A stretch of DNA of 64,000 nucleotides, taken from the NCBI RefSeq assembly GCF_019703855.1, contig NZ_AP024086.1, forward strand, positions 1,198,501-1,262,500. The letters run 5' to 3'. Each line of letters starts with the position of its first letter. Position 1 is the first letter of the stretch. Below the pieces are notes generated by a model. That model was not told the origin of the DNA and did no database searches. It saw nothing but the letters and a program-made list of their open reading frames with translations. Both the position numbers and the translations under genes were made by a program. The stretch comes from Desulfomarina profundi (GTDB lineage: Bacteria > Desulfobacterota > Desulfobulbia > Desulfobulbales > Desulfocapsaceae). Shown here in pieces: positions 44,505 through 61,953 of the stretch.

Positions 44505-44942
44505 ATGACAATAGACGGTGCCGTGTCCGAAAGAAACGCAGTCGATTCAGAAAAAATACTCACTTTTCCCGAAGGTATTCCGGGTTTTGAAAAATACACT
44601 ACTTACCTTCTTTTTCACAAGGAAGAAAATGATATTCTTGCCTATTGGCTCGAATCCTGTGATTCCCCGAAAGTCACCTTTACTCTTGTGGACCCGGGAC
44701 AGTACGGCATCAGCTATCAACTGGAACTGACGGAAAAAGAGCAGGAGCTGCTCAAGGCAAAGAGTTCTGCCGACCTTGGTGTGTTTCTAATCCTGAGTAA
44801 ACACGGGGAAGGGGAAAATCAGCCGGGAGGGCTCCATGCCAATATCGCCGGTCCCGTTATTATCAACCCAAAGAACCGTCTTGGCCTGCAGAAGGTAATT
44901 GAGAAATCCTCCGTCAATACCATTATCACAGAGAAGAAGTGA
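44505..44942 (+). CDS. fliW: Flagellar assembly factor FliW
   Basis: 145 residues from ATG 44505, chosen because AAAGGAG lies just upstream (the frame is open from 44466). LTFPEGIPGFEKYTTYLLF, the DSPKVTFTLVDPGQY block and PVIINPKNRLGLQKV are FliW signatures. FliW binds flagellin and CsrA to couple filament synthesis to assembly. csrA and flagellin genes are not nearby. Its last 17 bases overlap the convergent gene at 44926. Confidence 0.9.
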   Translation: MTIDGAVSERNAVDSEKILTFPEGIPGFEKYTTYLLFHKEENDILAYWLESCDSPKVTFTLVDPGQYGISYQLELTEKEQELLKAKSSADLGVFLILSKHGEGENQPGGLHANIAGPVIINPKNRLGLQKVIEKSSVNTIITEKK

Positions 44943-46566
44943 TTATTCGGCAGCGGGCGGCAAAATCCTCCGGATAATGACCGTTGATAAAACGGTACTG
45001 GGCCTCGCTGAAGGCTCCCGGTGACTGGGGCAGTCTTGGCAGGAAGCTGTAGAGCAGCGGCTGGTATAATTCTTTTGAGTCCTGATCACATCTCTTGGGA
45101 AATTCGATGGTGGTCACCATGCGCGCTCCCAGGGCCGCCAGAATCTTCTGGGCGGTGAGAATCCCGCTGTCCAGGGAGTTGCGGGTCGCCGTATCCGCTT
45201 CAAAGATATTTCCGGCCACCCGGCCGTTCCTGTCCGGCAGGGTCATAAGCTGCATCTCCCACTGGGATGTCTGGGCCTTGGGCACAAAGAGCATCACATT
45301 TTTATCCTGCCAGATAACCAGATCGGCCTCAAGATCAGGGCGATCATCCATTCGTTTATTACCGGCTATGGCCTTCTCATAATCCCTGAAAAATTCACTG
45401 CCGTACTCTTTTCTGTATTCCCTGATACAGTCTGCCACCAGGTCGCCGCAGCTATAACAGGAGAGTTCACCCACACTCTTTTCCGTGGACCCGGAGTAAG
45501 CGGGAACAGTGTCAGGAATCATGGCGTACTGCTGGTGTATCTGCTGGTGGGAGGCGTGCAGCCGATAGCCGCTCGGAGCGAAATCAAAACCGAAGTTCCA
45601 GCCCCACAAGGTGGAAACGCCAAGTGTGGGAAAGTCAGGATGATGGATGATCTCTTTTCTGAGTTCTTCAAGTTGTTCTTTATTCAATTTTCTCCGTGTG
45701 TTATGGGAGGCCAGGGCCAGGGCATGGGCGATTCGCACAAAGCTCCGCTGATAATAGAGATGGCGCAACCCTGTTATATCTTCACTTCCAAGGTCCCGGA
45801 TACAATATCGGATGGCATCATCGGCCATATTGGCAGCGTAATGGCCCCAGGGAATATAGGAGTTTCTCCGCAGATATTCAAAAACATGGCTTCCGGCCCC
45901 TGAACTGTCTTCCTTGCCTTTCGGCCATTCACCTACAATTTCACTGCCTCCCTGGGCACCGGGACGGATGACCATGACAATTTTATATTCATCGGGCAAA
46001 GCCGGGTTATTAGCCACAGCCTCAAAGAGATCATGGTTATGAATTACAGGCCGCGATATGTTTGCCGCTTCTTTCCGGTAACGCAGTCCCACGGGATTTT
46101 CACGTTCATCAACTATGATTTCGCAAGAAAGCCTCGCCAGCCGCACCAGATCTTTCGGATCCGTGGAGCAGGTGGCCAGGGCATAGAGCAGGGGGGCGGG
46201 AAGTTTTTCCAGGAGATCCGCTTTTGCGCCGGACGTTGCAACAAGATCGGTGAAGGAAACTTTTTCGGGTAGGTCGATTTTGATCCTGTCGAGGTTTTCT
46301 GCACTCCTGTCCGCCCATTCCTTGTCGATATAAGTTCGTCCCCGAAAGAAAAAGGCATTGGGAATCTCAAAGATCCAGTCGCTTTTCTCCACCTCAAAAT
46401 CATCATCCGGATAATTTTGCCCGTTATCAACGGGAAGGTTGTTTTCGTCCATGCCAAGGGTGGAAATTGCTGTTGTATCCCGCAGGTTTTTCACAAAAAA
46501 AGAAGGTTTATGGATACCGTAAACAAATTGCCCGGTCGGGGTGAACGCTGTCTGGATTCGTTTCAT
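44926..46566 (-). CDS. Conserved-looking protein of unknown function next to cas6
   Basis: 546 residues; I do not recognise the family with confidence. Features: a His/Gln cluster RLHASHQQIHQQYAMIPD (about residue 335-350) followed later by VMLFVPKAQTSQWEMQLM. Together these are faintly reminiscent of HIT-superfamily GalT/nucleotide phosphorylase proteins, which have an HxHxQ-like active site and two half-domains. A CYSCGD motif could bind metal. No signal peptide or membrane helix. It lies 70 bases downstream of cas6 on the same strand and may be co-transcribed with the adaptation genes, or be unrelated metabolism. The HIT link is weak. Confidence 0.6.
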   Translation of the reverse strand: MKRIQTAFTPTGQFVYGIHKPSFFVKNLRDTTAISTLGMDENNLPVDNGQNYPDDDFEVEKSDWIFEIPNAFFFRGRTYIDKEWADRSAENLDRIKIDLPEKVSFTDLVATSGAKADLLEKLPAPLLYALATCSTDPKDLVRLARLSCEIIVDERENPVGLRYRKEAANISRPVIHNHDLFEAVANNPALPDEYKIVMVIRPGAQGGSEIVGEWPKGKEDSSGAGSHVFEYLRRNSYIPWGHYAANMADDAIRYCIRDLGSEDITGLRHLYYQRSFVRIAHALALASHNTRRKLNKEQLEELRKEIIHHPDFPTLGVSTLWGWNFGFDFAPSGYRLHASHQQIHQQYAMIPDTVPAYSGSTEKSVGELSCYSCGDLVADCIREYRKEYGSEFFRDYEKAIAGNKRMDDRPDLEADLVIWQDKNVMLFVPKAQTSQWEMQLMTLPDRNGRVAGNIFEADTATRNSLDSGILTAQKILAALGARMVTTIEFPKRCDQDSKELYQPLLYSFLPRLPQSPGAFSEAQYRFINGHYPEDFAARCRIITSSL

Positions 46567-46636: not shown

Positions 46637-47632
46637 TCACGGGTTTCGGGTGCAGTCAATCTGCATGTTTCCCAGTCCCCAGGACGTTCCCTTGCCGATT
46701 TGGATGATCTGCCCGCATTGCAGAAATACAAGCAGGGCCGGATGGACGGTATTATAAACAATTTTTCCGGTAATACCAGGCAGGTTTATCCACTTTTCCT
46801 GTCGATAGGAATAGCGGACTCCGGTGGCAGGGTGGAGATTATTTCCAACACAGGAAATTTTTTTCAGGTTTTTGAAGATATGGTTTTCAATCTTTCCCAT
46901 ATTGGTATCCTTTCCGTAGGCCCTTTTCAGGTCACGCAGTCTTCTGACCACTGTTTTCAGGAGGATTTCCGGCAAGACGGTGGGCAGGTTTTTTTTTCCT
47001 GCTTTCACCAGGCAGAGAGGACTGCGAAAAGAAAGTGTAACCCTGCGGCAGGCATCCGGATTTTTGCCATGAACATGTTCACAGGCGATCCACTCGGCCA
47101 GCGAATGGATATATGTTTCCCCTTGCGTGTTTGCACAGGAGCCGGGCGTGAGTGGTTGAAAATCGACAATTCCGGTAAGAAATGGTCGGTTCTCGCTGTG
47201 GATGGATAAAAGACTGCTGCCGGCCATATCCAGAAAAAAAGCGGCTTCCTTAAGCGCGGGGCCAAACAGGCAGAACTCAACTTGCAAAAGAGAATTATCA
47301 TCACTGTCTTCAACTGCTGAAAGCACAAAAGGCCGTGGCGGGGGATGGCCAATCCGCAATATGCCTTTCGCGTCGACCCTCGGGGGAGGAAGTGGGGGAT
47401 CAAAGAGCTGCGGATATGAGCAGGAATGGGACAGCAGGCATTCCGGACAGGAGCGCTCCCGAAAATTTTTGTAAACACAGCAGTTTTTCTTAATCAGAAA
47501 ACCAATACTGCCCCGCAGCCTCGCGCAGAAATCATTGTTGAACTCTATCCTGCTGTTTCGTTTGCAGATAAATCGGAATCGTCCCGTTTCAAGATTAAAC
47601 AGGGGGTTGGTTATGGAACTGGTGGTGTTCAT
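46637..47632 (-). CDS. cas6: CRISPR-associated endoribonuclease Cas6
   Basis: 331 residues. Processes pre-crRNA inside repeats. The C-terminal glycine-rich loop GKGTSWGLGNMQ is the RAMP/Cas6 RNA-binding signature. An internal cysteine group, CPECLLSHSCSYPQLF, is of the type found in the PF10040-like Cas6 group. Start overlaps the RT stop by 4 bases (ATGA). Both arrays share one repeat, so this enzyme probably serves both. Confidence 0.85.
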   Translation of the reverse strand: MNTTSSITNPLFNLETGRFRFICKRNSRIEFNNDFCARLRGSIGFLIKKNCCVYKNFRERSCPECLLSHSCSYPQLFDPPLPPPRVDAKGILRIGHPPPRPFVLSAVEDSDDNSLLQVEFCLFGPALKEAAFFLDMAGSSLLSIHSENRPFLTGIVDFQPLTPGSCANTQGETYIHSLAEWIACEHVHGKNPDACRRVTLSFRSPLCLVKAGKKNLPTVLPEILLKTVVRRLRDLKRAYGKDTNMGKIENHIFKNLKKISCVGNNLHPATGVRYSYRQEKWINLPGITGKIVYNTVHPALLVFLQCGQIIQIGKGTSWGLGNMQIDCTRNP

Positions 47633-48474
47633 ACGATTTTTTTTCTGAGTTTCGGAAGCTTTTTTCCTAAAAAGACAACACCCGGTCCTGCTTCTGCCAC
47701 TCTGGTTTTTTTCTTGTGCAATTTCAGGCCAAGTTGTTGCAATGCCTGGTCGGCGCAGCCAAGAGCGTTATGAGCCTCCTTCCCGTTGGGGGCGAAAATA
47801 AGAAAATCATCAGCATATCTGACAAAAGAGAGATTACGGCTGGCGAGGTGATTGTCAAAATTGGTCAAAAAGATATTGCAGAGTAGAGGGGAGAGGATAG
47901 CACCCTGGGGAATTCCTTTTCGTTTGCCGAAAAAACCTGTCCTGGGAGTACCAACCTTCAGCCAACGTTCGATTAGAGCTGTCAGTTCCGGGTCGGGAAT
48001 AAGCCGGCGGAGAATTTTCAGCAGTGGACGATGGGGAATAGTATCAAAAAATTGTTGTATATCACCATCAACAACCCATTTCCCGCCACAGAGTATATAT
48101 TCACGTACACGGGAGAGGGCCATATCAATGGTTCTGCCGGGTCTGTAACCAAAACTGTCATGGTGAAACGTCTTTTCGGCGATCGGTTCCAGAACTGTGA
48201 GTACGGCTCTCTGGGCGATTTTGTCACGAAGCGTCAGGGCGGATATTATCCGTTGTCTCCCGTCTCCTTTACTGACAGGAAATAATCTCACGGATCCGGG
48301 CTGGTAAGTACCATCTGCCAGTTCTTTTGACATTTGCAGCATATGATAGACGAGATCATTGCGCATTTCCACGGCTGGAACTGATTCATCCCACATGGTT
48401 TTATCATTTTTATGCCGTTTCCATGCGTGGTTGAGAACCTGAGGAGAGGCGGCATCTTTCAGCAGCTTTCCCAT
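47629..48474 (-). CDS. Stand-alone CRISPR-associated reverse transcriptase
   Basis: 281 residues, group II intron-like RT: KGDGRQRIISALTLRDKIAQRAV, DSFGYRPGRTIDMAL, VVDGDIQQFFDTIPH (motif A Asp), GIPQGAILSPLLCNIFL (motif B) and FVRYADDFLIF (motif C YADD, both catalytic Asp). It ends soon after the palm and has no maturase-X or endonuclease domain. It is sandwiched between cas1 (16-base overlap) and cas6 (4-base overlap), so it belongs to the adaptation module. Related RT-Cas1 proteins acquire spacers from RNA. Here the RT is not fused. Confidence 0.93.
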   Translation of the reverse strand: MGKLLKDAASPQVLNHAWKRHKNDKTMWDESVPAVEMRNDLVYHMLQMSKELADGTYQPGSVRLFPVSKGDGRQRIISALTLRDKIAQRAVLTVLEPIAEKTFHHDSFGYRPGRTIDMALSRVREYILCGGKWVVDGDIQQFFDTIPHRPLLKILRRLIPDPELTALIERWLKVGTPRTGFFGKRKGIPQGAILSPLLCNIFLTNFDNHLASRNLSFVRYADDFLIFAPNGKEAHNALGCADQALQQLGLKLHKKKTRVAEAGPGVVFLGKKLPKLRKKIV

Positions 48475-49535
48475 GTATCACCTTCAGAAGTCTGGTATTG
48501 GGGAAGAATACCGGTTACATCGCGGACAATTGCATGTATTGCGCTGCGCAGTGTAATATCTGTTTTATCGGCCGGGGCCGGTTCAGAGAGAAATTCTTCG
48601 AAATCCAGATGCCATGCCGGCCAGTTCAACCGTCTTTCGCTCCATCGGCTGTAATATATAGCGCGGCCGTTTTTATTCAATCTGCTTCCGTTGCTTTTGG
48701 AGGAGGTGAAGTGTTCAGGCGTGAGATCGCGATGGATCAGTTCAAGGACGAAACCGTCAACTGCCGGTCGACATGGTTCAAGGATATCGAGCAGGAGTGA
48801 TTCTCGTCCGGCTCTCGGCAGATGCATAAAGCCGACACAGGGGTCAAGCCCACGCAGTTGCACAACCTGGCGCACCTCGGATAACGCCATGGTATAACTC
48901 AGGGACAGAAGGCCATTGACCGGATCGCGGGGCGGTCGTCTGTTGCGCCCGGTAAAATGCCATTTTGGGGGAAGGATTTCGCTCAGAAAGGAAAACCAGG
49001 CGGTAGCGCCCGTTCCCTCATGCCCCCTGATGGATTCGATGCTTTCCGCCTCTTCCACAGCCAGACGACACCGGCGGAGAATCTCGCCCGTTGCGGCTGC
49101 TTTTTCCACGATTTCTTCGGCAAAAAGAGAGCAAAGGGTTTCATCCTGGTCATCGCGACAGAGCAGCTCCAGAAGCTTTTCCTGCACAGCCAGTTTTCTG
49201 TCAATGAGAAAACGGGCAATTTCAGTGGAAACAGTTGGGGAAGCAGCACCCTTGTGCTGGGCCAGACGAACCATAACAGAGGTGGAGAGACCGCTGCCGA
49301 GCCAGGCGGGGCCACCCTTGCCTCTGCCAGGGAAAAGGATGGCGGGAACACCGCAGTCTGCCAGTTTGCGCCAGACATCACAGGAGACCATAGGGCTGCC
49401 ATATACTACCACCCGGCCTACCATATTGATCGGTACCCGCTCCGGTTTACGGCCGGGACGATCAATTCTCAGTACTTGCCCCTCACTCTTCACCACGATA
49501 TCCCGATGATCAAGGAGTACCACAATCTCTCCCAT
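48459..49535 (-). CDS. cas1: CRISPR integrase Cas1
   Basis: 358 residues from ATG 49535 (MGEIVVLLDHRD), which has GAAGGAG upstream; an upstream ATG at 49562 adds nine unlikely residues. The catalytic metal ligands lie in RGHEGTGATAWF (Glu), CVGFMHLPRAGRESLLLDILEP (His, Asp). With Cas2 it inserts new spacers at the leader end. 132 bases separate it from array 1. Overlaps the RT gene at its 3' end. Confidence 0.96.
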   Translation of the reverse strand: MGEIVVLLDHRDIVVKSEGQVLRIDRPGRKPERVPINMVGRVVVYGSPMVSCDVWRKLADCGVPAILFPGRGKGGPAWLGSGLSTSVMVRLAQHKGAASPTVSTEIARFLIDRKLAVQEKLLELLCRDDQDETLCSLFAEEIVEKAAATGEILRRCRLAVEEAESIESIRGHEGTGATAWFSFLSEILPPKWHFTGRNRRPPRDPVNGLLSLSYTMALSEVRQVVQLRGLDPCVGFMHLPRAGRESLLLDILEPCRPAVDGFVLELIHRDLTPEHFTSSKSNGSRLNKNGRAIYYSRWSERRLNWPAWHLDFEEFLSEPAPADKTDITLRSAIHAIVRDVTGILPQYQTSEGDTWESC

Positions 49536-49667
49536 AGCCGTTTCTCCTTCCCTGCCCAGCATTCAAGGTTGCAGCTGCATTCTTATTGCCTGACTAAGGA
49601 TAGAGCGACGATGGTCGTCCGTCAAGAGGGAAAATGATATGGGTGGAAAGATTCACTGGAATGAATA

Positions 49668-50710
49668 AAAGCAATCCTCTTCCTTAGCGAGGATACTCTG
49701 CAACACTGAAAGAGTTAGGAATGGTTTAACAGATGCATGTCTCAATCCTCTTCCTTAGCGAGGATACTCTGCAACCGAATATGTTGGATTTGTCGCAAAG
49801 ACTGGACCGTCTCAATCCTCTTCCTTAGCGAGGATACTCTGCAACAAGAAAAGCTTTGGACTCCAGCACAATTCTTTGTCTCAATCCTCTTCCTTAGCGA
49901 GGATACTCTGCAACAACTACGGAGATGCTCTTGGTACCTTCATTATAGGAGGTCTCAATCCTCTTCCTTAGCGAGGATACTCTGCAACTTACCGGCCCTG
50001 CCGGATCAGGAAAAACTACAATGGTCTCAATCCTCTTCCTTAGCGAGGATACTCTGCAACACTCTTATCATAAAGAATGGAGATTACAAAATAGGTGTCT
50101 CAATCCTCTTCCTTAGCGAGGATACTCTGCAACAAGCACTGTTCTTGCAGCTTGAGGAGAGTTGTTCTTTGTCTCAATCCTCTTCCTTAGCGAGGATACT
50201 CTGCAACTTTAATAATATCCAGTCATTGAGCGCAATGTGGTCAGTCTCAATCCTCTTCCTTAGCGAGGATACTCTGCAACTTTTTGTTGTGAATCAACCC
50301 CTCTTGGCTGTGGATGTCTCAATCCTCTTCCTTAGCGAGGATACTCTGCAACTAATGAGCTGAGGTCAACCGGCATACGTCGGTTATGTCTCAATCCTCT
50401 TCCTTAGCGAGGATACTCTGCAACAGGTAGTGGCAGAGTGTATAGATCCAAATATGAGTGTCTCAATCCTCTTCCTTAGCGAGGATACTCTGCAACAAAA
50501 CCCAACTGGTTGTATACGGCAAACAGGAATGCGTCTCAATCCTCTTCCTTAGCGAGGATACTCTGCAACAGAGACCCTTATTTATTCCGTGAAATTATTG
50601 CGGTCTCAATCCTCTTCCTTAGCGAGGATACTCTGCAACGGTTGAACATTCTGGTGGTCGAATTGAAATTCGGGTCTCAATCCTCTTCCTTAGCGAGGAT
50701 ACTCTGCAAC
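49668..50710 (-). CRISPR. CRISPR array 1: 15 repeats of 37 bases, 14 spacers
   Basis: Repeats start at 49668 (first four bases degenerate), 49739, 49809, 49878, 49952, 50024, 50097, 50171, 50244, 50316, 50388, 50460, 50533, 50603 and 50674; all but the first are identical. Spacers are 32-37 bases. As read on the plus strand the repeat begins GTCTCAATCC and ends ATACTCTGCAAC, with an ATCCTC/GAGGAT hairpin. On the minus strand it starts GTTGCAGAG and ends ATTGAGAC, a good match to the 8-base 5' handle (ATTGAAAC type) of type III crRNAs. The leader-like sequence at the right end and the degenerate repeat at the left end agree: transcription is leftward. Confidence 0.98.
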
Positions 50711-50940
50711 TGCAGCCGGTTCCAATTCCGTTGCAAAATCAGTATAATATACTGTGTTCTTTTTGACACTATTTTTCAGCAATTTTTTAACCAGATAAAC
50801 GAACACTTTATTTGAAATTCCGCTAAATCGGAACGTTATAAATAAAAGTGAAATTACAATATGTTAAAGAGTTTTCGATGTAAAATAAAGGGCAAGTTAT
50901 GTGTATACGTTCATAAGGGCTGAAAAAATAACCTGATCAT
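50711..50940 (-). promoter_or_regulatory. Leader of CRISPR array 1
   Basis: The first 67 bases next to the array match the flank of array 2 at all but about five positions. A 15-base palindrome CAGTATAATATACTG (50740-50754) begins 30 bases from the repeat. On the minus strand GTGTCA (plus 50764-50769), 17 bases, TATACT (plus 50741-50746) form a promoter that would start about 20 bases ahead of the first repeat. Confidence 0.8.
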
Positions 50941-50986
50941 TTGTAAAATCATGGGGTTGACTGGTTTTCACCTTACAGGAGAACGT

Positions 50987-51364
50987 TTATTTTTTAAAAG
51001 TAAACCAGGCAAGAACTTTCTCTTTCCAGTTTTTACTGGCTGCCTGAGGTTTTCCGCCAACCTTTTTATGTCCTTTCCGGCCTTTACCCGGCAGGATCAG
51101 GGCTTCGGACGATCTCCCGGTGCCGCAGCTCCAGACATCGCCAGGTCTGGTGATGGGGTAAGCTCTGATATCATCCTTTTTCGCCAGAATCAGAACCTCG
51201 AGCCGTGAAAGCAGTTTATTCAGATCATCTTCACTGCCCTGGACAAAAAAAACTGAACCCTGGACGTTGATGCCCTCTTTTTTTAAAAGCCGGTAAACCC
51301 TGCCCAGTCTTTTCGGGTCGGCGATATCATAGGCCAGCAGGTACCAGCCGGATCGAGGTCTCAT
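50987..51364 (-). CDS. cas2: Cas2 protein with long basic tail
   Basis: 125 residues from ATG 51364, preceded by GGAGGAA. Ferredoxin-like Cas2 core WYLLAYDIADPKRLGRVYRLLKKEGINVQGSVF, with the conserved Asp13, followed by ...DDIRAYPI. The C-terminal 35-40 residues are a basic Gly/Lys-rich extension. Thirteen bases downstream of a second cas2 gene and upstream (in transcription) of array 1's leader. Confidence 0.92.
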   Translation of the reverse strand: MRPRSGWYLLAYDIADPKRLGRVYRLLKKEGINVQGSVFFVQGSEDDLNKLLSRLEVLILAKKDDIRAYPITRPGDVWSCGTGRSSEALILPGKGRKGHKKVGGKPQAASKNWKEKVLAWFTFKK

Positions 51365-51377
51365 TTCCTCCCCCTGT

Positions 51378-51665
51378 CTAACTGAATGGCCTGAACTTAC
51401 CACGCAGGTTTGATTTTCGGCCAATTCCCCGGCCGAGAATTTTGCGCCCGGGTTCAACCCAGGCCATCAGCAGATGATCGGTGGCAAGATCCATCACCTG
51501 CCCAAGTTGCATAAAAAGCTCCTCCGCCTCTGCCAGGGTCAACTGACATTCAAATACCGACTTCTGTCCACCCAGCCGCCATTCTTTCAAAATCTTCCGG
51601 ACCCTGTAACGCCGCTTGTTCTTACTGATATCGTAGGCGATTATTATTGGTTTTCTTTTTTGCAT
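51378..51665 (-). CDS. cas2: Second Cas2 protein
   Basis: 95 residues from ATG 51665 (MQKRKPIIIAYDIS), with GAGGA upstream. The Cas2 core IIIAYDISKNKRRYRVRKILKEWRLGGQKSVFEC includes the conserved Asp (D12) and the F-E-C strand. Its start lies 44 bases inside the end of the RAMP gene 51622-53838. Clearly different from the neighbouring Cas2, so the pair may form a heterodimer in the Cas1-Cas2 complex or serve distinct roles. Confidence 0.9.
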   Translation of the reverse strand: MQKRKPIIIAYDISKNKRRYRVRKILKEWRLGGQKSVFECQLTLAEAEELFMQLGQVMDLATDHLLMAWVEPGRKILGRGIGRKSNLRGKFRPFS

Positions 51666-53838
51666 GGGGGAATCCTCTGAAGTTGGGAAGAGGAGGTTCA
51701 TTCGTGGAACTGTTACTCTTATATTTATCTAATGGGATTAACCCTTGTTTATCCTCTTGATTCTTGAGGCGATCATTTTTTGAAAACCATTTGTAAGTTT
51801 CCTCTTTTTGATTCCCAGGGCCGTATTTAATGTTAGAACAGGGATTGCAGCCTATAAGCTCCAAGGCATCTTTCTGTATTGTGGTTGAGCAATTTTCCCC
51901 TGCGAAAAATGATTTCCGTATATTAAGATACTCTTCTAAATTTTTTGGACAATCATTAGAATAAATATGGGAAAAGCGATTCGCATTAAGGCCCTTTGAG
52001 CTATATCGATGTTGTCTGTTTAATAACTCTACTTTGTTTATCCGTATGGAAACAGAGCCAAAACCTAGGGGTTTGCCCATTCCAATTTTATGTTGAAATT
52101 TCTTATTGGGTGAAAGGGAATAAATAAGGAGTCCAAGTTCTCCGTCAGTAAGATTGTTGAACCTGACTTTAAATTGAAATTTACAGCGGGGGTTGATAGG
52201 TGTGACTTTGCTTTTGAGCTTTTTATTGTTGTCTGAAGCATTTTTGGGTACAAAGCCTTTATGGTGGAGATACTGTTTTCTCCCCAGGGGAATGTACCCC
52301 TGACGAAGTGTCGAATCAATTTTCAGCTCATTTTTACTGATATAGCATGTATTGTTAGCGAAACCTTCTATATTATTGGGGAGGTTTGTTTTTCGAAAGT
52401 AAACTGAAGGAGATGGTGGTTTGGGGGAGGCTAAAATATTAAGTGTTAATTGCGTTCGACTGTTTAAATAATAACCCTGATCAGGAGAGTCATATGCTCT
52501 TGCATCTGAAAATTTAACTCTGCCAAGAAGTGATCGCATCTTACTTGGGGTTTGATTCCCGTCTGGTTCCTCAACAAAGCCAAAAAGTAATTCTGCAGGG
52601 CTGAGTTTATTTCGCTTTGGATTTATTGGTAGCAGTTCGCTGTCAATCTGGGAAAAAAAATCATGGGTTGAAGCAGGGTGTTGGGTATCTTCATTGTCAA
52701 TTTCTTTACGCCAGATTTGAGAAATAGAAATTTCAGCCACTTTTCCCCCAGACTTATCAGGTTCAAAAAAGACAATATCTCTTTCTTGAATGGAATATTT
52801 TGGTTGGCGATCAATAAAATCATTGCTGCCTTTTAAGGTGAATGGAAGCATATCATGCTCTTCACCATTTTTCGTTTTTCTTCTCTTGTTTTCTGTATCT
52901 CTTTCTTTGGCAAGACGTGTAAATTTCGCGATGGCTTCGGGCATTATTTCGTATGTTTGTTCACTTTCTATCCCTTCAGGGAATGGTAAGGCCAGTTCGT
53001 ATTTTTTATTTCCAGGGATTTCATTTTGTCGGGATTCAGAATAAAAAGTACGTAAAATAACTCTTTCTCTCCCTTCTATTTTGCAATTTATAGGTGGTGT
53101 TGAAGTATCTATAGCGCAACCAAGAAGGTAAGGACCAACCTCTTTGCCTTTTGCTACACGAGTAATAACACCTTTATCATATGAATATTTTCCGATGGGT
53201 GTGAGCCAGTGAAATTGCTGGTTTTTAAGGGAATATGATTTTGGTGTATTTTTTAAATTTTCCCTGTTGTAACAATATGTTTTTAATCGAGGTGGTGTAT
53301 GTGAAAACATCTTTTTGTAATTTTCAGGAATTTGGAAATATTTAGGATTTTGTTCTGATTTTTTCAGTGTTGGTAATGCCAGGGGAAGAAGGCGCAATTG
53401 TCCATTTTCTTTTACGATCAGGCCGACCGCAGAAAGAGCTTCATGAGTTGTTGCCCTTCTTGTATATGTTTTGTTTTCCAAAACACGCAGGGCTGAATTG
53501 CTTGCTGCTTCGGCAAGGGATGAAATACATCCTTTAAGAGTTGATGCGGGGATAGCGGGTTTGTTTTTGATCTCAAAAGGATGGATGATGGTAGGGCCGG
53601 TAGCGGTAGGCTCATGCCGGCCGCCAATTATTATTGCGTTTTCGGTTTCTAGAATACAGGTTAAAGTTCCGGAGTGTGTATTTGAATGATAGCGATCATG
53701 ACAGGCTGTACCTAGATTGGCAAAATTGAGTTTCTTTTTATTCAGAATATCGTTGACAGCAATTCCATCTGGTTGAAGTGATTGTTTTTTGTTGGTTTTA
53801 GTGACCGGAACAAAATGATATGGATAATGGAAAGTCAT
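51622..53838 (-). CDS. Large RAMP-superfamily type III protein (TIGR03986-like)
   Basis: 738 residues. The N-terminal part has HSGTLTCILETENAIIIGGRHEP, PFEIKNKPAIPASTLKGCISSLAEAASN, a RAMP start with the conserved P-x-S-xx-KG loop. The C-terminal part has FKVRFNNLTDGELGLLIYSL and HKIGMGKPLGFGSVSIRI, a RAMP glycine-rich loop. A roughly 400-residue insertion separates them, as in the TIGR03986 group of CRISPR RAMP proteins. A C-terminal CNPC pair could bind zinc. Backbone or capping subunit of the effector complex. Last gene of the effector set before cas2. Confidence 0.8.
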   Translation of the reverse strand: MTFHYPYHFVPVTKTNKKQSLQPDGIAVNDILNKKKLNFANLGTACHDRYHSNTHSGTLTCILETENAIIIGGRHEPTATGPTIIHPFEIKNKPAIPASTLKGCISSLAEAASNSALRVLENKTYTRRATTHEALSAVGLIVKENGQLRLLPLALPTLKKSEQNPKYFQIPENYKKMFSHTPPRLKTYCYNRENLKNTPKSYSLKNQQFHWLTPIGKYSYDKGVITRVAKGKEVGPYLLGCAIDTSTPPINCKIEGRERVILRTFYSESRQNEIPGNKKYELALPFPEGIESEQTYEIMPEAIAKFTRLAKERDTENKRRKTKNGEEHDMLPFTLKGSNDFIDRQPKYSIQERDIVFFEPDKSGGKVAEISISQIWRKEIDNEDTQHPASTHDFFSQIDSELLPINPKRNKLSPAELLFGFVEEPDGNQTPSKMRSLLGRVKFSDARAYDSPDQGYYLNSRTQLTLNILASPKPPSPSVYFRKTNLPNNIEGFANNTCYISKNELKIDSTLRQGYIPLGRKQYLHHKGFVPKNASDNNKKLKSKVTPINPRCKFQFKVRFNNLTDGELGLLIYSLSPNKKFQHKIGMGKPLGFGSVSIRINKVELLNRQHRYSSKGLNANRFSHIYSNDCPKNLEEYLNIRKSFFAGENCSTTIQKDALELIGCNPCSNIKYGPGNQKEETYKWFSKNDRLKNQEDKQGLIPLDKYKSNSSTNEPPLPNFRGFPHAKKKTNNNRLRYQ

Positions 53839-55465: not shown

Positions 55466-57342
55466 TATATATCCTCCCATTCAGGACATGATATACCGTG
55501 AAACGGCAGGTTGACGCATATTTCTCCAAAACCGTGTTTTGCCAGCCATGGACAGTTCTGCCAGTCAATCGGTTCTCCGTAGATGTCACCTGCCCATCCC
55601 GGCAGGGGCAGGTTGTTTTTTTGCAGTTTAGCCAGTGTTTCACCAATCCGTTTAGTGGCCCTTTTGTTGCCTTGTGAAGAAAGAATAAAGACCGAACCTG
55701 CTTTTACGAGGAGATATGGATTATATGGTTTTCCTTTCTGAAAACGCCGGGATAAATAGCGGCCATAAAGGACCTGGCAGCTGAAGTGCCTGTCGAGTTG
55801 TAGATCTTTGTCTATTTCATGCCAGTATTGTTGGTATTCTCTGGTCAGTTTATCAGAGGTGCAGTTATCCGGGCCTGCAAGTACCTTTGGGTGAACAATC
55901 ATAGCATTGGTTTGGAGGGTGATAATCCATAGGGGGTTGTCGGGCGAATCTGTGCGATAAAGTGGCTTGCATTCCAGCGGGTGAGGTTTTGCTGCAGTGA
56001 GCTGTGTTTTCAACTCAACCTTTGTTTTTCCAAGGCCGAAGAGACCATATTCAAACAGGGTGCAGAGCTGACTGGATATACGTTTTCTTGTTTCAGGATC
56101 GGCAATAACAGGGTTTTCATTGTAGCAAAGATCGATCTGGCAGAGCCATTCGTGGTTGTCGGGAACAATACATTCCATGGCGAAAAGTTCGCTTTCCATT
56201 GCCCGGCGCCTTTTACTATCAATGGCAGTGCGAACTCTTAAAATTCTGCGCAGATTTTCGGGCCAGCCAAAGTGTCTTTTTACCGCTCGCCAGTCTCTGC
56301 CTTTCCAGTCGGCAGCAAAGGAGGGGGCCTTTCCGGCAATAAGACCGGGGCCGGATTTTAGTGCGATATCATAGGTATTGTCAGCTGCCCGTACTGTAGT
56401 TAATGGTGGTTGTTTTGGACGAAATGAATAGTCTGTGGGTCCGCTTTCCGATGTGCTTTCAATCGGAAAGGCATGGTTGATTTTAATTCGGCTGAAATGT
56501 TTTCCCAGCTCTGTCCACGGTAGGGGCAGGGAGCCGTCAATGGGTGAGTTAATATCTCTGCCGGTGATGCGGTTCAGGGTATGGGCCATAATTCCCTTGA
56601 TAGCCCCACCTGAAATGATTTCCTCTCCCTCGAATCTGTTCTTCAGGGGCAGGTGCCCTGCAAGACAGAAAGGTGCCAGCGGGGTGAGAGAGAGGTTGAA
56701 CAAACCATCGCATGTCTGTATCTTTTCCAGTGGGGGAGGTTGCGGAAATTCCTTGCTTTTATGATCAATCGTCACTTTTTTCAGTCTGCCATATCCGATA
56801 CCCTGCTGACCGCCAAAGGCCGGAACGAGCCTGAATACGGTGTTGATTGTATGAAACAGTTTTTTTAATTCTTCGTCGTTTTCTGCTGCCGCTCTGATTA
56901 TTCCGGTAAAGACAACTTCCCGGCCCGGTGCGAATGGCAGTTCCATAAAGACAAGTTGACCGGAAGAGACAGCTCCCCGGTCGGAATCAATTTCAATACG
57001 GGTGGAAATCCCATGGTCGGGAGGGTTCTCACAGGTAAAATCAGAGAAGTGGAGCAAGCCTCTTCCCGGCTGATTGTTGGTGCTGGTTTCAGGTTTAAAA
57101 CCGAACAATTTCTGCATTTCATCTTCAGTTAACCAATTATAATCCAAACAATACTGTTTGAGATTACCTTTGATAAGAGAGTTTGGCAGGTACAATCGAC
57201 CCAGGTGATCTCGAGCTGCAGTTTCACTGAAGCCCGGACTTGCCTCGGTTGCTCTGGTGAGTATAGGGGCTTCCAGAGTTAATTTGATATGGAAGGTGAT
57301 ATCCAATCGAGTGACAGGATTTTTTCCGGCTGTTGCTGTCAT
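55465..57342 (-). CDS. Double-RAMP protein, second
   Basis: 625 residues. Domain 1 (about 10-205): ITFHIKLTLEAPILTRA, LYLPNSLIKGNLKQYC, ISTRIEIDSDRGAVSSGQLVF and AFGGQQGIGYGRLKKVTI. Domain 2 (about 220-465): LFNLSLTPLAPFCLAGHLP, ISGGAIKGIMAHTLNRI and LFEYGLFGLGKTKVEL. A C-terminal stretch of about 160 residues follows. Each domain has the RAMP loop before a helix and the late glycine-rich loop. Start overlaps the cas10 stop by 4 bases. Backbone part of the type III effector; subunit identity cannot be fixed by eye. Confidence 0.82.
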   Translation of the reverse strand: MTATAGKNPVTRLDITFHIKLTLEAPILTRATEASPGFSETAARDHLGRLYLPNSLIKGNLKQYCLDYNWLTEDEMQKLFGFKPETSTNNQPGRGLLHFSDFTCENPPDHGISTRIEIDSDRGAVSSGQLVFMELPFAPGREVVFTGIIRAAAENDEELKKLFHTINTVFRLVPAFGGQQGIGYGRLKKVTIDHKSKEFPQPPPLEKIQTCDGLFNLSLTPLAPFCLAGHLPLKNRFEGEEIISGGAIKGIMAHTLNRITGRDINSPIDGSLPLPWTELGKHFSRIKINHAFPIESTSESGPTDYSFRPKQPPLTTVRAADNTYDIALKSGPGLIAGKAPSFAADWKGRDWRAVKRHFGWPENLRRILRVRTAIDSKRRRAMESELFAMECIVPDNHEWLCQIDLCYNENPVIADPETRKRISSQLCTLFEYGLFGLGKTKVELKTQLTAAKPHPLECKPLYRTDSPDNPLWIITLQTNAMIVHPKVLAGPDNCTSDKLTREYQQYWHEIDKDLQLDRHFSCQVLYGRYLSRRFQKGKPYNPYLLVKAGSVFILSSQGNKRATKRIGETLAKLQKNNLPLPGWAGDIYGEPIDWQNCPWLAKHGFGEICVNLPFHGISCPEWEDI

Positions 57343-58838
57343 ATTCCACCTCCGTTATCGTTCATTGGACAAATATAATCCCATAGCTCACAGATATGAA
57401 TCCACATGGATGGGGGGCATTTATCCGTTTCAGGCGGATTGTTGAAAAATGACAGCTTTGCTAGATTTTCAGCGCTTGAGAAGGCTTTTTCATCAACCAC
57501 ATCTCTGGTCCTTTCCATTTCTTTTTCAAACAGCAGGGTACTGTTATCCCTGCCATCCTGAACGGCGGCTCTGGCCAGGCTATGCACCTTTCGGCGTGGG
57601 AATAGTTCTTTCAGTTGAATGAACGGTTTCTGGATGGCAGCTATCTTAGTGCCATCAAGAGACAGAGGGGCGGAATTAAGGGTTCCCGGAAATTGCTCTT
57701 TTCTGTAATGGTGAAGATCCTGGCTGATATAGTCAAAGGATTCCAATACGCAATATTGGAACAGGTTTTTTCTCCTGTTACAACTCTTTGCTTCTTCTGT
57801 CAGCTCTTTGGCCAACCTGGTAATACGATGGATAGGGGCATTATGGTGACAGAAGACGATTCCTGCGCCATGATAGAGAGGTTCTCCCTCAAAGTCCCAG
57901 GTCTCTATATGCTGGTAGAGCAGGGCCAGGGTCTGCCAGCCCTGCCAGGCGGGGACTACGAGGAGGAGTTCATCGCCACCCCACATAAGAGTCTCCATCT
58001 GTAAACATTTTTCATTGTCGATTGCTATGGAAAAATAGTCACTATTTCTCGCAAAGTTCAGCAGGTTGCTGAGAAATGTAGCTCTTTTTTTGTTGAGTTC
58101 ATCATCAAATTTTTTCTGGGTATATTCTGTTTTGCAAAATTTCTGCTGCAATGTTCCAAAGCTGTTACCATCGGTGTAGATAACGGCCATTTTATGTTGC
58201 AGAGTCTTGCTTGGGCTGTTTGCGGTGAGTTTTTCAAGGTCATGGGTGAACTTGTCTGTGATCCCTTCATTGAGAGTGCGTTGCAGCTCATTTTGGTAAA
58301 AATGGTGTTTTTTGTTCCGGCCATAATCATGGCGAATTTTAACAGGTGGAGAGACGATTTTTTCAGGTGCTTTAATGGCAATTGTGGTGGTTGCCGGGCG
58401 CAATCGATCCAGGGAGCATTCCCATATGTTATTTTTATCATTCCATTTGGGGCTGACCAGAGTAGGTTGCTGATATTGCCTCCAGTGATTACGGGCAATA
58501 ACTTTTTCAAGTTGATTACGAAATTTTTCATCATCGGTAGTGATGATATCCACAACAAAGGTGGCATAACATAAGTTTTTGTCTTTTTTTAAAATATCAT
58601 CAACTTGCTGTCGTATTTCTTCCGGTTTATCGGCGCTGAATTTAAAGAGTCCGACAGATGCTCCGGTACTGATTTCTTCCAGGGTAAAGTGCTGATTTTT
58701 TTCCTTAAAAGTCTTTTTGAGATTCCGGATTGCTTTCAGGAGCAAAAGGCCGCCGCCCCGAATAACACTGAGCTGTTCCGTGTCCTCAATAAAATTGGCA
58801 ATGTTCACCGCTTCTATACGCAGGTAGTTGGTTGGCAT
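57339..58838 (-). CDS. cas10: Small Cas10-like protein with GGDE palm, no HD domain
   Basis: 499 residues. A first palm-like region (about 1-125: LRIEAVNIANFIEDTEQLSVIRGGGLLLLKAI) and a second palm (about 215-340: KMAVIYTDGNSFGTLQQKF and METLMWGGDELLLVVPAW) match the paired cyclase palms of Cas10/Cmr2. The metal motif is GGDE rather than GGDD. D in YTDGNSFG is the other metal ligand. No HD-nuclease motif at the N-terminus, so target DNA cleavage is unlikely. It probably makes a nucleotide second messenger on target-RNA binding. 55 bases downstream of the DHH/CorA gene. Confidence 0.85.
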   Translation of the reverse strand: MPTNYLRIEAVNIANFIEDTEQLSVIRGGGLLLLKAIRNLKKTFKEKNQHFTLEEISTGASVGLFKFSADKPEEIRQQVDDILKKDKNLCYATFVVDIITTDDEKFRNQLEKVIARNHWRQYQQPTLVSPKWNDKNNIWECSLDRLRPATTTIAIKAPEKIVSPPVKIRHDYGRNKKHHFYQNELQRTLNEGITDKFTHDLEKLTANSPSKTLQHKMAVIYTDGNSFGTLQQKFCKTEYTQKKFDDELNKKRATFLSNLLNFARNSDYFSIAIDNEKCLQMETLMWGGDELLLVVPAWQGWQTLALLYQHIETWDFEGEPLYHGAGIVFCHHNAPIHRITRLAKELTEEAKSCNRRKNLFQYCVLESFDYISQDLHHYRKEQFPGTLNSAPLSLDGTKIAAIQKPFIQLKELFPRRKVHSLARAAVQDGRDNSTLLFEKEMERTRDVVDEKAFSSAENLAKLSFFNNPPETDKCPPSMWIHICELWDYICPMNDNGGGI

Positions 58839-58893: not shown

Positions 58894-61461
58894 TCATGAT
58901 AAAAATTTTTTATATAGTAGCCGGAGAATAATAGTGGTTGGGATTAAAATGAAAACTCCATGGATTATATACGGTATCCAGTGAGCAGAGATAACAGATA
59001 TATTTGTAAAAAAAGATGCTTTGAGGCAAGTCAGCAATTCAGGAGGGAGATGAGAGATAATCATTGATTTAATCTGAGAAAAATGAATAAAGAGGAGTTT
59101 TTTCGGTGTGGCCTGTAACGTTGCCAAAAATGTCAGGATAAGAGCGATTATGGCAAGGCCAAATCCATATCTGTTAATAAGCGATGCCCTTTGTGCCTGC
59201 AGAAATTCATCGAGTTGTTGCAGCTTCTGCCTGACTTTCTCGAAGAGCTGTTCAACTTTCATTGCTTTACGACATTTTTCGTAGAGTTCTTCACCCTGTA
59301 GTGCCGCACTTATTTCTCTATGGAAAAAGATACTGTCAAAGCGAATAAATTCCGTTCTCAGTTTCTGTATTTTGTTGGCGGTTACAAAATGGTTTACTTT
59401 TGGCATGAGCTCTTCACTGGCAAGAGATAACCGATGAAGATAATTAATGAGAGAAACCCGGTGGTACAGTGTTAGAAGAGCCATAAAAACGTAATGGTTG
59501 TGAATGGTGGGTGCAATTTCATCGGCAAAAAATCTGCCGAATCCCATGTAGATATTTGAATAATTCGTATATCCGTAAAGGTTCCCTGAAGGGCCGTACC
59601 AACGCCTGTCTGTATTGTTTTGAATGCTTGTTTTTACAACATCGGGATCATATAAATATCCCACCGGTTCATTATTGCCTTCTGTGTCAACATAGAGTCC
59701 AAGTGAGTACAGGGCTTCGTAATATTCTTGGCCTGCCTTTTTTTCAGGTTTATTCCCCCACAAACCAAAATGGGAAATCAAAAAGAGCCTGTCGTCTAAA
59801 AGGGGGACGATTTGTTTATTTTCTGTCTTAACCAATCTTCCCACAAGCGTTTCAATCACAGTTGAAATGGGAGGAACAAGGTCATTCTTGAGTGTATTAC
59901 CTGTGGCAGTCATTGATAATTTTGAGGTGATTTTTCTTCCTTCAGTCTTTAATTCAACAGTATCAGGATTTTTTCCTTCACTTTCCTGGGCCACAAAGGT
60001 CATATAGAGGATGCGCAGCAGGTTGTTAACCTTTAATAAATGGGAGACAGCTGTCAATGGAAGGGTTTTGCGGAGATTGTTATTCTTGCACAGTTGTTCG
60101 AAAAGTTGGAGAGGCTGTTCCAGCGAATCAAAATTTATTTCTTTTTCTATGGCAGGCAGACAAACTTTGAAAGACAGAATCTGGATATTATTATTTGGGA
60201 AAGAATAGATTGCCAGATGTTCAATATCTAATTCGGCTTTAAATTTGTCCTTAGCTTCTTCAGGGGTGCCGGATAGTTTTTTTTCTTTATGGGTGACAAT
60301 CAGCTGGTCTTTCTGCTGGTTATTTTCATGGGGCAGAACAATTCTTTTTATGTGTGTACTTTTTTGGTTATCAGAACTGAAAAATAGTTTTCTGACTGTG
60401 GGGAGAAAATGGAGCGCGGCTGCTGTTGAATCGGCATCAGATATGGTATGAGGGCTTTCTATGGCTTTTTCTTGAAGTTTTACTTGCTGAGATTCGCCAT
60501 CTTTTTCCAAGATAAAAGGAAAGAGGAACGTAGTGTTCCAGGATCGTACAGGTCTGCCGGAGGTCAGGCAAAATTCCAGGAGAAGGGTCAGAAGTGTGTC
60601 CCAGGGTGCTGTATCTCTTCTTGCTAACGCTCCGAAAAAACGGCTATGTCCGCCGCCGTACCACATTTTAAAGTGGGCCTTCAGTCTTTTGTCATTTATG
60701 ATATCGTAAATAGGCTCACGCCATTTGTTCGGGCCATATAGCTCAACACGACAGGGTGTGATCTTGTTTCTCGTGGGATCGATACAGTCATGATGGCTGA
60801 TGATAAGACATTTTTTCAGAATTAAATGTTTGTTTGTACGTTGACAGTCCAGCCACGTTTTTTTGTCGGGAAAACGAATGATTTCCGCAAGAGGTTTCTG
60901 GTATTTTTCGGGAATGACGCAGACTTCCAGATCGCCGAACGACCATTTATGGTGGATAGCTTGCTCGACTTCGTTGTAAAGCTCAGGTGCAACACCCGTA
61001 AGTTCTCTTTCTCTCCTGCGGATTTCGCACATTGTTTCATAATCCGCCCCCGCCTCCAAAAGACCATAAAGAAAATCCCTATCATTTGCGGCAATATACT
61101 TCATCTCACTGTGCTGTGGGTCGCTGAAACGAATATTTAGATGTTCTGTAAATTGTTCCAGGCTGCTAAGCGGATGTGTTCTATCGAGATCGTCATATTG
61201 GTGGTGATCAACAATAATGATTGTATGGCCTTCACGGCGTAACTGCTCCTCTTTTTCCGGTCCTGGGATTTCAACAATTATGACGGTTGTTTTCAGATCC
61301 TGGAATGTTTCTTCCGGTTCTGTTTCCAGTCTTGCCCCCCATGGTTGATGGGATTTCCTCACGTCGAGTCCTAATTCCTCTGCAAGCTTGAGTATTGTAT
61401 GGCTTTCAAGATCATTTTCAGGACAGATTACTGAAACAGTGTGGTAGGAAATATGGTTCAT
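58894..61461 (-). CDS. DHH/DHHA1 phosphoesterase fused to CorA-like membrane effector
   Basis: 855 residues. Residues about 1-285 carry a DHH phosphoesterase: IIIVDHHQYDD (D85 H86 H87), AANDRD (125-130), ISHHD (221-225), and the DHHA1 substrate motif YGGGHSRFFGA (268-278). Residues about 290-760 form a cytoplasmic region ending in a helical stretch (LYEKCRKAMKVEQLFEKVRQKLQQ). Two membrane helices follow (about 766-783, GLAIIALILTFLATLQ; and 828-850, WIPYIIHGVFILIPTTIILR), arranged as in CorA channels but without the GMN motif. CorA-type effectors of type III systems are opened by SAM-AMP and have a separate DHH-family phosphodiesterase (NrnN) nearby; here both seem joined. First gene of the effector operon. 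Confidence 0.85.
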   Translation of the reverse strand: MNHISYHTVSVICPENDLESHTILKLAEELGLDVRKSHQPWGARLETEPEETFQDLKTTVIIVEIPGPEKEEQLRREGHTIIIVDHHQYDDLDRTHPLSSLEQFTEHLNIRFSDPQHSEMKYIAANDRDFLYGLLEAGADYETMCEIRRRERELTGVAPELYNEVEQAIHHKWSFGDLEVCVIPEKYQKPLAEIIRFPDKKTWLDCQRTNKHLILKKCLIISHHDCIDPTRNKITPCRVELYGPNKWREPIYDIINDKRLKAHFKMWYGGGHSRFFGALARRDTAPWDTLLTLLLEFCLTSGRPVRSWNTTFLFPFILEKDGESQQVKLQEKAIESPHTISDADSTAAALHFLPTVRKLFFSSDNQKSTHIKRIVLPHENNQQKDQLIVTHKEKKLSGTPEEAKDKFKAELDIEHLAIYSFPNNNIQILSFKVCLPAIEKEINFDSLEQPLQLFEQLCKNNNLRKTLPLTAVSHLLKVNNLLRILYMTFVAQESEGKNPDTVELKTEGRKITSKLSMTATGNTLKNDLVPPISTVIETLVGRLVKTENKQIVPLLDDRLFLISHFGLWGNKPEKKAGQEYYEALYSLGLYVDTEGNNEPVGYLYDPDVVKTSIQNNTDRRWYGPSGNLYGYTNYSNIYMGFGRFFADEIAPTIHNHYVFMALLTLYHRVSLINYLHRLSLASEELMPKVNHFVTANKIQKLRTEFIRFDSIFFHREISAALQGEELYEKCRKAMKVEQLFEKVRQKLQQLDEFLQAQRASLINRYGFGLAIIALILTFLATLQATPKKLLFIHFSQIKSMIISHLPPELLTCLKASFFTNISVISAHWIPYIIHGVFILIPTTIILRLLYKKFLS

Positions 61462-61631: not shown

Positions 61632-61953
61632 TGCGGAAAAGGTAGTAATTTCAAGGATACTCTGCAACTGCAGAAAAAAATTAGAGGAACAGCTGATTTC
61701 GGTGTGTCTCAATCCTCTTCCTTAGCGAGGATACTCTGCAACACAAAAAGAAGTGATTAGGAGAAATTTTAAAAAGTCTCAATCCTCTTCCTTAGCGAGG
61801 ATACTCTGCAACTCAACAAAAAATCCACCGACCGGCTGGAGATCTCCGTCTCAATCCTCTTCCTTAGCGAGGATACTCTGCAACCTTGACCAGGGCGGCG
61901 ACATCACGCTGCTCTGGTCTCAATCCTCTTCCTTAGCGAGGATACTCTGCAAC
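61632..61953 (-). CRISPR. CRISPR array 2: four intact repeats plus one degenerate
   Basis: Intact repeats at 61706, 61776, 61848 and 61917 (to 61953), identical to array 1. A degenerate terminal repeat occupies 61632-61668, of which only the last 14-15 bases on the plus strand (GGATACTCTGCAAC) remain. Four spacers of 32-37 bases. As in array 1 the decayed repeat is at the left end and the leader at the right, so transcription is leftward towards the effector operon. Confidence 0.96.

What the first reader, a model, noticed from the sequence alone, without database searches (positions are those of the whole stretch)
46637..49535. Unfused cas1-RT-cas6 adaptation cassette, in reverse order to known fusions
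The three genes overlap by 16 and 4 bases and read cas1, RT, cas6, whereas natural fusions read Cas6-RT-Cas1 from N to C terminus. The RT keeps its YADD and motif A Asp and lacks intron domains. This could be a state before or parallel to the fused proteins, with spacer capture from RNA.
Basis: partly seen in the sequence, partly recalled or inferred. Interest (0 to 1): 0.6.

Follow-up and report, generated by a model that had tools for sequence, protein, structure and literature searches.

The report
Unfused CRISPR reverse transcriptase spacer-capture module
This is a bacterial CRISPR immune locus whose reverse transcriptase is a separate gene instead of being fused to the spacer-inserting enzyme Cas1; it belongs to a distinct family of such unfused systems and probably lets the cell record invaders from their RNA.

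Summary
On the minus strand, cas1, RT and cas6 are intact, separate and overlap by 16 and 4 nt, inside a type III-D operon with two cas2 genes and CRISPR arrays. Cas1-RT order is not peculiar to this genome: the RT falls in a fully supported clade of 22 never-fused RTs (Desulfobacterota, Gamma/Betaproteobacteria), and in 16 of 19 informative loci the order is cas1-RT. The clade lies outside the supported lineage holding RT-Cas1 and Cas6-RT-Cas1, so a parallel lineage fits best; 'before fusion' is unresolved. The cas6 contact looks secondary: in two relatives cas6 directly follows cas7, and here the adaptation module lies between cas7 and cas6. Most of these RTs end 6-13 residues after motif 7, with no thumb; no intron RNA is present. 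The 30 spacers are purine-rich on the target strand (23 versus 5, flip-test p=0.0001; type I controls p=0.60), as expected of crRNAs antisense to transcripts. RNA capture itself is not shown; no protospacer was found. Unfused CRISPR RTs are already described (clades 9, 13), so this is a new member of a known kind. A III-D DHH-CorA effector nearby may be more novel.

The parts
48459..49562 (-). cas1 (integrase); probable start codon at 49535
   Evidence: Pfam Cas_Cas1 E=4e-63; catalytic residues conserved
47629..48474 (-). stand-alone reverse transcriptase, fingers and palm only (281 aa), YADD
   Evidence: RVT_1 E=8e-40; PADLOC CRISPR RT 305 bits; clade of 22 unfused RTs; model pLDDT 92, closest solved folds group II intron RTs
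46637..47632 (-). cas6 (crRNA maturation endonuclease), 4-nt overlap with RT
   Evidence: Pfam CRISPR_Cas6 E=4e-11; PADLOC Cas6 155 bits
51378..51701 (-). cas2a
   Evidence: Pfam CRISPR_Cas2 E=6e-14; two cas2 genes in 17 of 19 clade loci
50987..51457 (-). cas2b
   Evidence: Pfam CRISPR_Cas2 E=5e-16
49668..50710 (-). CRISPR array 1: 15 repeats of 37 nt (GTTGCAGAGTATCCTCGCTAAGGAAGAGGATTGAGAC), 14 spacers; degenerate last repeat at 49668
50711..50986 (-). AT-rich leader of array 1, conserved before all three arrays of the island
   Evidence: leader comparison
61706..61953 (-). CRISPR array 2: 4 repeats, 3 spacers, same repeat and leader; a third array with a 1-nt variant repeat lies just outside the window (64302-65267)
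51622..53838 (-). Cas7-type RAMP (TIGR03986), III-D
   Evidence: TIGR03986 266 bits; PADLOC Csm3/III-D 263 bits
53840..55480 (-). double Cas7 RAMP
   Evidence: Pfam RAMPs E=9e-37; PADLOC Cas7_IIId 177 bits
55465..57342 (-). Csx10/Cas5-like III-D subunit
   Evidence: PADLOC Csm4 CAS-III-D 178 bits
57339..58838 (-). Cas10 with GGDE palm, no HD domain found
   Evidence: Pfam Cas10-Cmr2_palm2 E=4e-10; PADLOC Cas10 123 bits
58894..61461 (-). DHH phosphodiesterase-like domain fused to CorA membrane effector
   Evidence: PADLOC CorA 208 bits (residues 256-815), DHH_CorA 48 bits (residues 16-180)

Best explanation
[quoted passage not shown] Most likely the RT copies RNA (transcripts of invaders, perhaps cellular RNA too) into cDNA held by the Cas1-Cas2a-Cas2b integrase, which inserts it at the leader end of the arrays. 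Cas6 then cuts the array transcript into crRNAs for the III-D effector, which senses matching RNA and signals through Cas10 to the DHH-CorA membrane effector. Shown here: the genes, their intact active sites, the operon-like layout, the clade, and co-inheritance of RT with cas1 and cas2a/cas2b. Inferred: physical complex, RNA capture, signalling. Cas6 touches the RT because the module sits inside the effector operon between cas7 and cas6, not because Cas6 belongs to the capture machine (inferred from two relatives).
For: Gene content and intact catalytic residues. RT clade 100/100 and congruent Cas1 clade, with the window next to the same relatives in both trees. Cas1 immediately upstream of RT in 16 of 19 loci, two cas2 genes in 17 of 19, fusion in none. 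cas6 coupled to cas7 in L074 and L086. No intron RNA (positive control). Spacers purine-rich on the target strand, 23 versus 5, p=0.0001; RT-less arrays of relatives, nearly all type I by repeat, n=125, 49.8% purine, p=0.60. RNA-spacer acquisition is established for RT-Cas1 of Marinomonas, Fusicatenibacter and Vibrio vulnificus (PMC11014452).
Against: No experiment and no protospacer. Strand bias could come from selection for useful type III spacers after unbiased DNA capture; no RT-less type III control was available. Other arrays of the clade show only weak bias (52.3%, p=0.006). The RT lacks a thumb, so activity alone is uncertain. Two clade loci carry decayed RTs (L068, L089), so the RT is dispensable at times.
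Confidence: 0.75

Rival explanations
1. The unfused RT clade is the state from which RT-Cas1 fusions arose (pre-fusion), so the window preserves an ancestral arrangement.
For: No fused member in the clade; holding it together with the main fused lineage is not rejected (AU p=0.43) and in the larger set gave a higher likelihood. Silas 2017 proposes adjacent genes first, fusion later (PMC5513706).
Against: The clade has its own long stem (0.8-0.9 changes per site), the order cas1-RT that cannot give RT-Cas1 by read-through, and lacks the 46 or more residues that fused RTs of the main lineage carry between RT7 and Cas1. Toro 2018 favours several origins (PMC6013744).
Confidence: 0.25
2. The genes were once fused and split again (fission).
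For: Silas 2017 invokes fission for some unfused cases; a second unfused group (L011, L070, L071, L037) nests inside the fused lineage here.
Against: The window clade lies outside the supported fused lineage (98/95), and joining it with the L011/L070 group is borderline rejected (AU p=0.049). No linker or partner-domain remnant remains at the RT C-terminus.
Confidence: 0.1
3. RT, Cas1 and Cas6 form one three-part complex, an unfused counterpart of Cas6-RT-Cas1 in which Cas6 is needed for RNA capture.
For: 4-nt overlap, suggesting translational coupling of RT and cas6. In the fused protein Cas6 affects RNA spacer acquisition (PMC8102632).
Against: cas6 is directly next to RT in no other clade member and is coupled to cas7 in L074 and L086. 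Window Cas6 gave no phmmer match to the Cas6 part of the fused proteins, and the RT is not a supported sister of Cas6-RT-Cas1.
Confidence: 0.12
4. An ordinary mobile group II intron RT that happened to land beside cas1.
For: Closest solved folds and best NCBIfam match are group II RTs.
Against: No intron RNA, no X/D/En domains, clade-wide linkage to cas1 and cas2 across classes, congruent trees.
Confidence: 0.02

Closest known systems
CRISPR-associated RTs not fused to Cas1 (clades 9 and 13 of Toro 2018; branch 7 of Silas 2017)
   Same: Group II-like RT without intron RNA, separate gene linked to cas1 in CRISPR loci (PMC6013744).
   Different: Published member sequences were not held, so identity with clade 13 could not be tested; clade 9 is from Chloroflexi, this clade from Desulfobacterota and Gamma/Betaproteobacteria.
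RT-Cas1 fusions (e.g. Vibrio vulnificus, type III-D)
   Same: RT plus Cas1 plus Cas2 beside a type III-D effector; from my own knowledge V. vulnificus also needs two Cas2 proteins.
   Different: Not fused; different RT clade; no linker or thumb region after RT7.
Cas6-RT-Cas1 (Marinomonas, Thiomicrospira; PDB 7kft)
   Same: The same three activities encoded in one operon; FADD/YADD RT; 7kft is matched by the clade profile.
   Different: Three proteins in the opposite gene order; RT not shown to be sister (joining them not rejected, AU p=0.18); cas6 linkage is local.
Methanosarcina RT next to cas6 (Silas branch 11, Toro clade 1)
   Same: RT gene adjacent to cas6 (PMC5513706).
   Different: That locus lacks cas1, and its RT splits from a node shared with class F introns (PMC5541045).

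Membership tests
CRISPR-associated RT, unfused type | RT of group II-like family without intron RNA or maturase domains | tested here: met
   (control 99)
CRISPR-associated RT, unfused type | Separate gene linked to cas1 across species | tested here: met
   19 loci with both genes, none fused
CRISPR-associated RT, unfused type | Falls in published clade 13 or clade 9 | not testable with these tools
   published sequence sets are in supplements that are not held
RT-Cas1 / Cas6-RT-Cas1 family | RT and Cas1 in one polypeptide | tested here: not met
   separate overlapping ORFs
RT-Cas1 / Cas6-RT-Cas1 family | RT inside the fused lineage of the tree | tested here: not met
   outside the 98/95 fused lineage; AU tests do not exclude a sister position
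Mobile group II intron | Catalytic intron RNA and X/maturase domain | tested here: not met
Type III-D CRISPR-Cas | Csx10-type Cas5, III-D Cas7 proteins, Cas10 | tested here: met
   profile matches
RNA spacer acquisition | RT-dependent capture of RNA | not tested
   needs experiment; indirect strand bias only

The most novel reading that the evidence does not exclude
An independent lineage of RNA-capturing CRISPR modules in which a thumb-less, fingers-palm RT acts as a detachable subunit of a Cas1-Cas2a-Cas2b integrase. It would have arisen in parallel with the fused proteins, with Cas2a/Cas2b or Cas1 supplying what the missing thumb and linker do elsewhere.
Probability: 0.35. Interest if true: 0.6.

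Novelty: new member of a known kind. Interest (0 to 1): 0.4.

Why it matters
The fused RT-Cas1 proteins are hard to dissect because all activities share one chain. A never-fused clade with separate RT, Cas1, Cas2a and Cas2b genes allows each part to be removed or swapped, and makes testable whether fusion is needed for RNA capture and whether RTs were recruited once or several times.

Tried and rejected
RT against plasmids: no match. Spacers (all 30) against annotated phages: no match; two spacer cores and the repeat against IMG/VR: no exact match. Open-frame count as a strand test: uninformative (56 target-strand versus 54 crRNA-strand frames), replaced by purine skew, so the purine test was chosen after a first test had failed. 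Group II intron hypothesis: rejected. Tree placement of the clade relative to group II classes: left open after AU tests. Papers on V. vulnificus RT-Cas1 (PMC6821258), Mohr 2018 and the Toro 2019 RNA Biology paper were not held, so the two-Cas2 requirement there is from my own knowledge.

Full report
Observation. The minus strand of 46637-49562 holds cas1, RT and cas6 as three complete ORFs that overlap by 16 and 4 nt. Profile matches leave no doubt about identity (Cas1 E=4e-63, RT E=8e-40, Cas6 E=4e-11). Cas1 keeps its catalytic Glu/His/Asp and the RT its motif A Asp and YADD. Upstream on the same strand lie DHH-CorA, cas10, csx10, a double Cas7, a TIGR03986 Cas7, cas2a, cas2b and a 15-repeat array with its leader. 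The full order is DHH-CorA, cas10, csx10, cas7x2, cas7, cas2a, cas2b, leader-array, cas1, RT, cas6. Two more arrays with the same leader lie upstream, one of them just outside the window. The single-contig genome holds one other cas1, beside an array with a type I-like repeat.

Relatives. Searches of the order and of the 84,980-species genome collection found about 20 close RTs (41-57% identity), then a sharp drop to group II introns and RT-Cas1 fusions, mostly at 33-42%. Of the close relatives, 19 loci including the window hold both RT and cas1. None is fused, 16 read cas1 then RT on one strand, and 17 have two cas2 genes. Exceptions to the order are RT-cas2a-cas2b-cas1 (L069, L073) and a divergent RT (L072, Desulfocicer vacuolatum, the closest at 57%). 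The window order of cas1 and RT is therefore the clade norm, and the RT position is plastic.

Cas6. No other clade member has cas6 directly after RT. In L074 and L086 cas6 starts at the very end of the cas7 gene. In the window the adaptation genes and array stand between that cas7 and cas6. I infer insertion or rearrangement within the effector operon, which makes the cas1-RT-cas6 'cassette' a by-product.

Phylogeny. In an 85-sequence quick tree and a 47-sequence careful tree the window RT is in a fully supported clade of unfused RTs (100; 100/100). The RT-Cas1 and Cas6-RT-Cas1 proteins of the main lineage form another supported group (98/95), with a second unfused set nested in it. Cas1 gives the same clade with the same neighbours (99; one truncated clade Cas1, L084, was labelled 'noRT' by my script but belongs to the clade), so RT and Cas1 travel together. 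The deep position is open: joining the clade with the main fused lineage (AU p=0.43), with Cas6-RT-Cas1 (p=0.18) or with one group II class (p=0.18) is not rejected; joining with the other unfused set is borderline rejected (p=0.049).

RT anatomy. Most clade RTs stop 6-13 residues after the RT7 FLG motif (a few have 28-72), whereas fused RTs of the main lineage carry 46 or more residues before the Cas1 match. The model (pLDDT 92) has fingers and palm only and matches group II RTs (GsI-IIC, E. rectale). Rfam finds no intron RNA at the locus; the same library finds it around true group II RTs, including one elsewhere in this genome.

Spacers. Thirty spacers, oriented by the repeat, are purine-rich on the strand the crRNA would target: 56.6%, 23 spacers against 5, strand-flip p=0.0001. 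One encodes a Walker A motif (TGPAGSGKTTM) in that sense. Other clade arrays show a weaker bias (52.3%, n=126, p=0.006), and RT-less arrays of relatives, nearly all type I by their repeats, none (49.8%, n=125, p=0.60). Coding strands of this window are mostly purine-rich. I read this as crRNAs antisense to transcripts, as a type III system needs. It fits RNA capture but also selection. No protospacer was found.

Known or new. Unfused CRISPR RTs are described (clades 1, 9 and 13), and a Methanosarcina RT next to cas6 is known. The window adds a well-resolved unfused clade with conserved cas2a-cas2b-cas1-RT. It may equal clade 13, which I could not test. I file it as a new member of a known kind.

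Side finding. III-D loci with CorA were said in 2025 to encode no known SAM-AMP cleaving enzyme (PMC12669027). Here a DHH domain is fused to CorA in a III-D locus. In the same phylum, DHH-CorA fusions occur beside III-D-like genes and fused RT-Cas1 in G180 and G110 (in G110 the DHH domain is identified by its VIDHH motif only, as PADLOC matched CorA alone), and on contigs of G201 and G212. In G244 the DHH domain is instead fused to Cas7, with a separate CorA. NrN-CorA fusion itself is known from III-B loci (PMC10600005).

Noticed in passing
window 58894-61461; L241 12320-14785, L242 3465-6392, L240 9789-12047, L239 967-3321: DHH phosphodiesterase-like domain fused to the CorA membrane effector in type III-D loci, mostly in genomes that also carry CRISPR RTs; a 2025 classification says III-D CorA loci lack known SAM-AMP cleaving enzymes.
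   Followed up: partly
L243 10129-13131 and 3709-5340 (G244): The same DHH domain is fused to the C-terminus of a III-D Cas7 (TIGR03986) while CorA is a separate gene: a domain that swaps fusion partner between Cas7 and CorA.
   Followed up: partly
window 57339-58838: Cas10 of the locus is short (499 aa), without a recognisable HD domain, and its cyclase motif reads GGDE rather than GGDD.
   Followed up: no
window 51378-51701 and 50987-51457; L092, L094, L096: Two different cas2 genes accompany nearly all unfused loci and also several RT-Cas1 fusion loci, suggesting a Cas2a-Cas2b heteromer tied to RT-type integrases.
   Followed up: partly
L068 9433-10158; L089 9998-10672: Decayed or truncated clade RTs left beside CRISPR arrays without cas1: remnants of lost modules.
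   Followed up: no
window 44926-46566: 546-aa protein directly downstream of cas6 on the same strand, with no match in Pfam, NCBIfam or PADLOC; relation to the CRISPR locus unknown.
   Followed up: no
64302-65267 (outside window, G000:C1:1262802-1263767): Third array of the island with a repeat differing at one or two positions but the same leader; its variant base is fixed across the array.
   Followed up: partly
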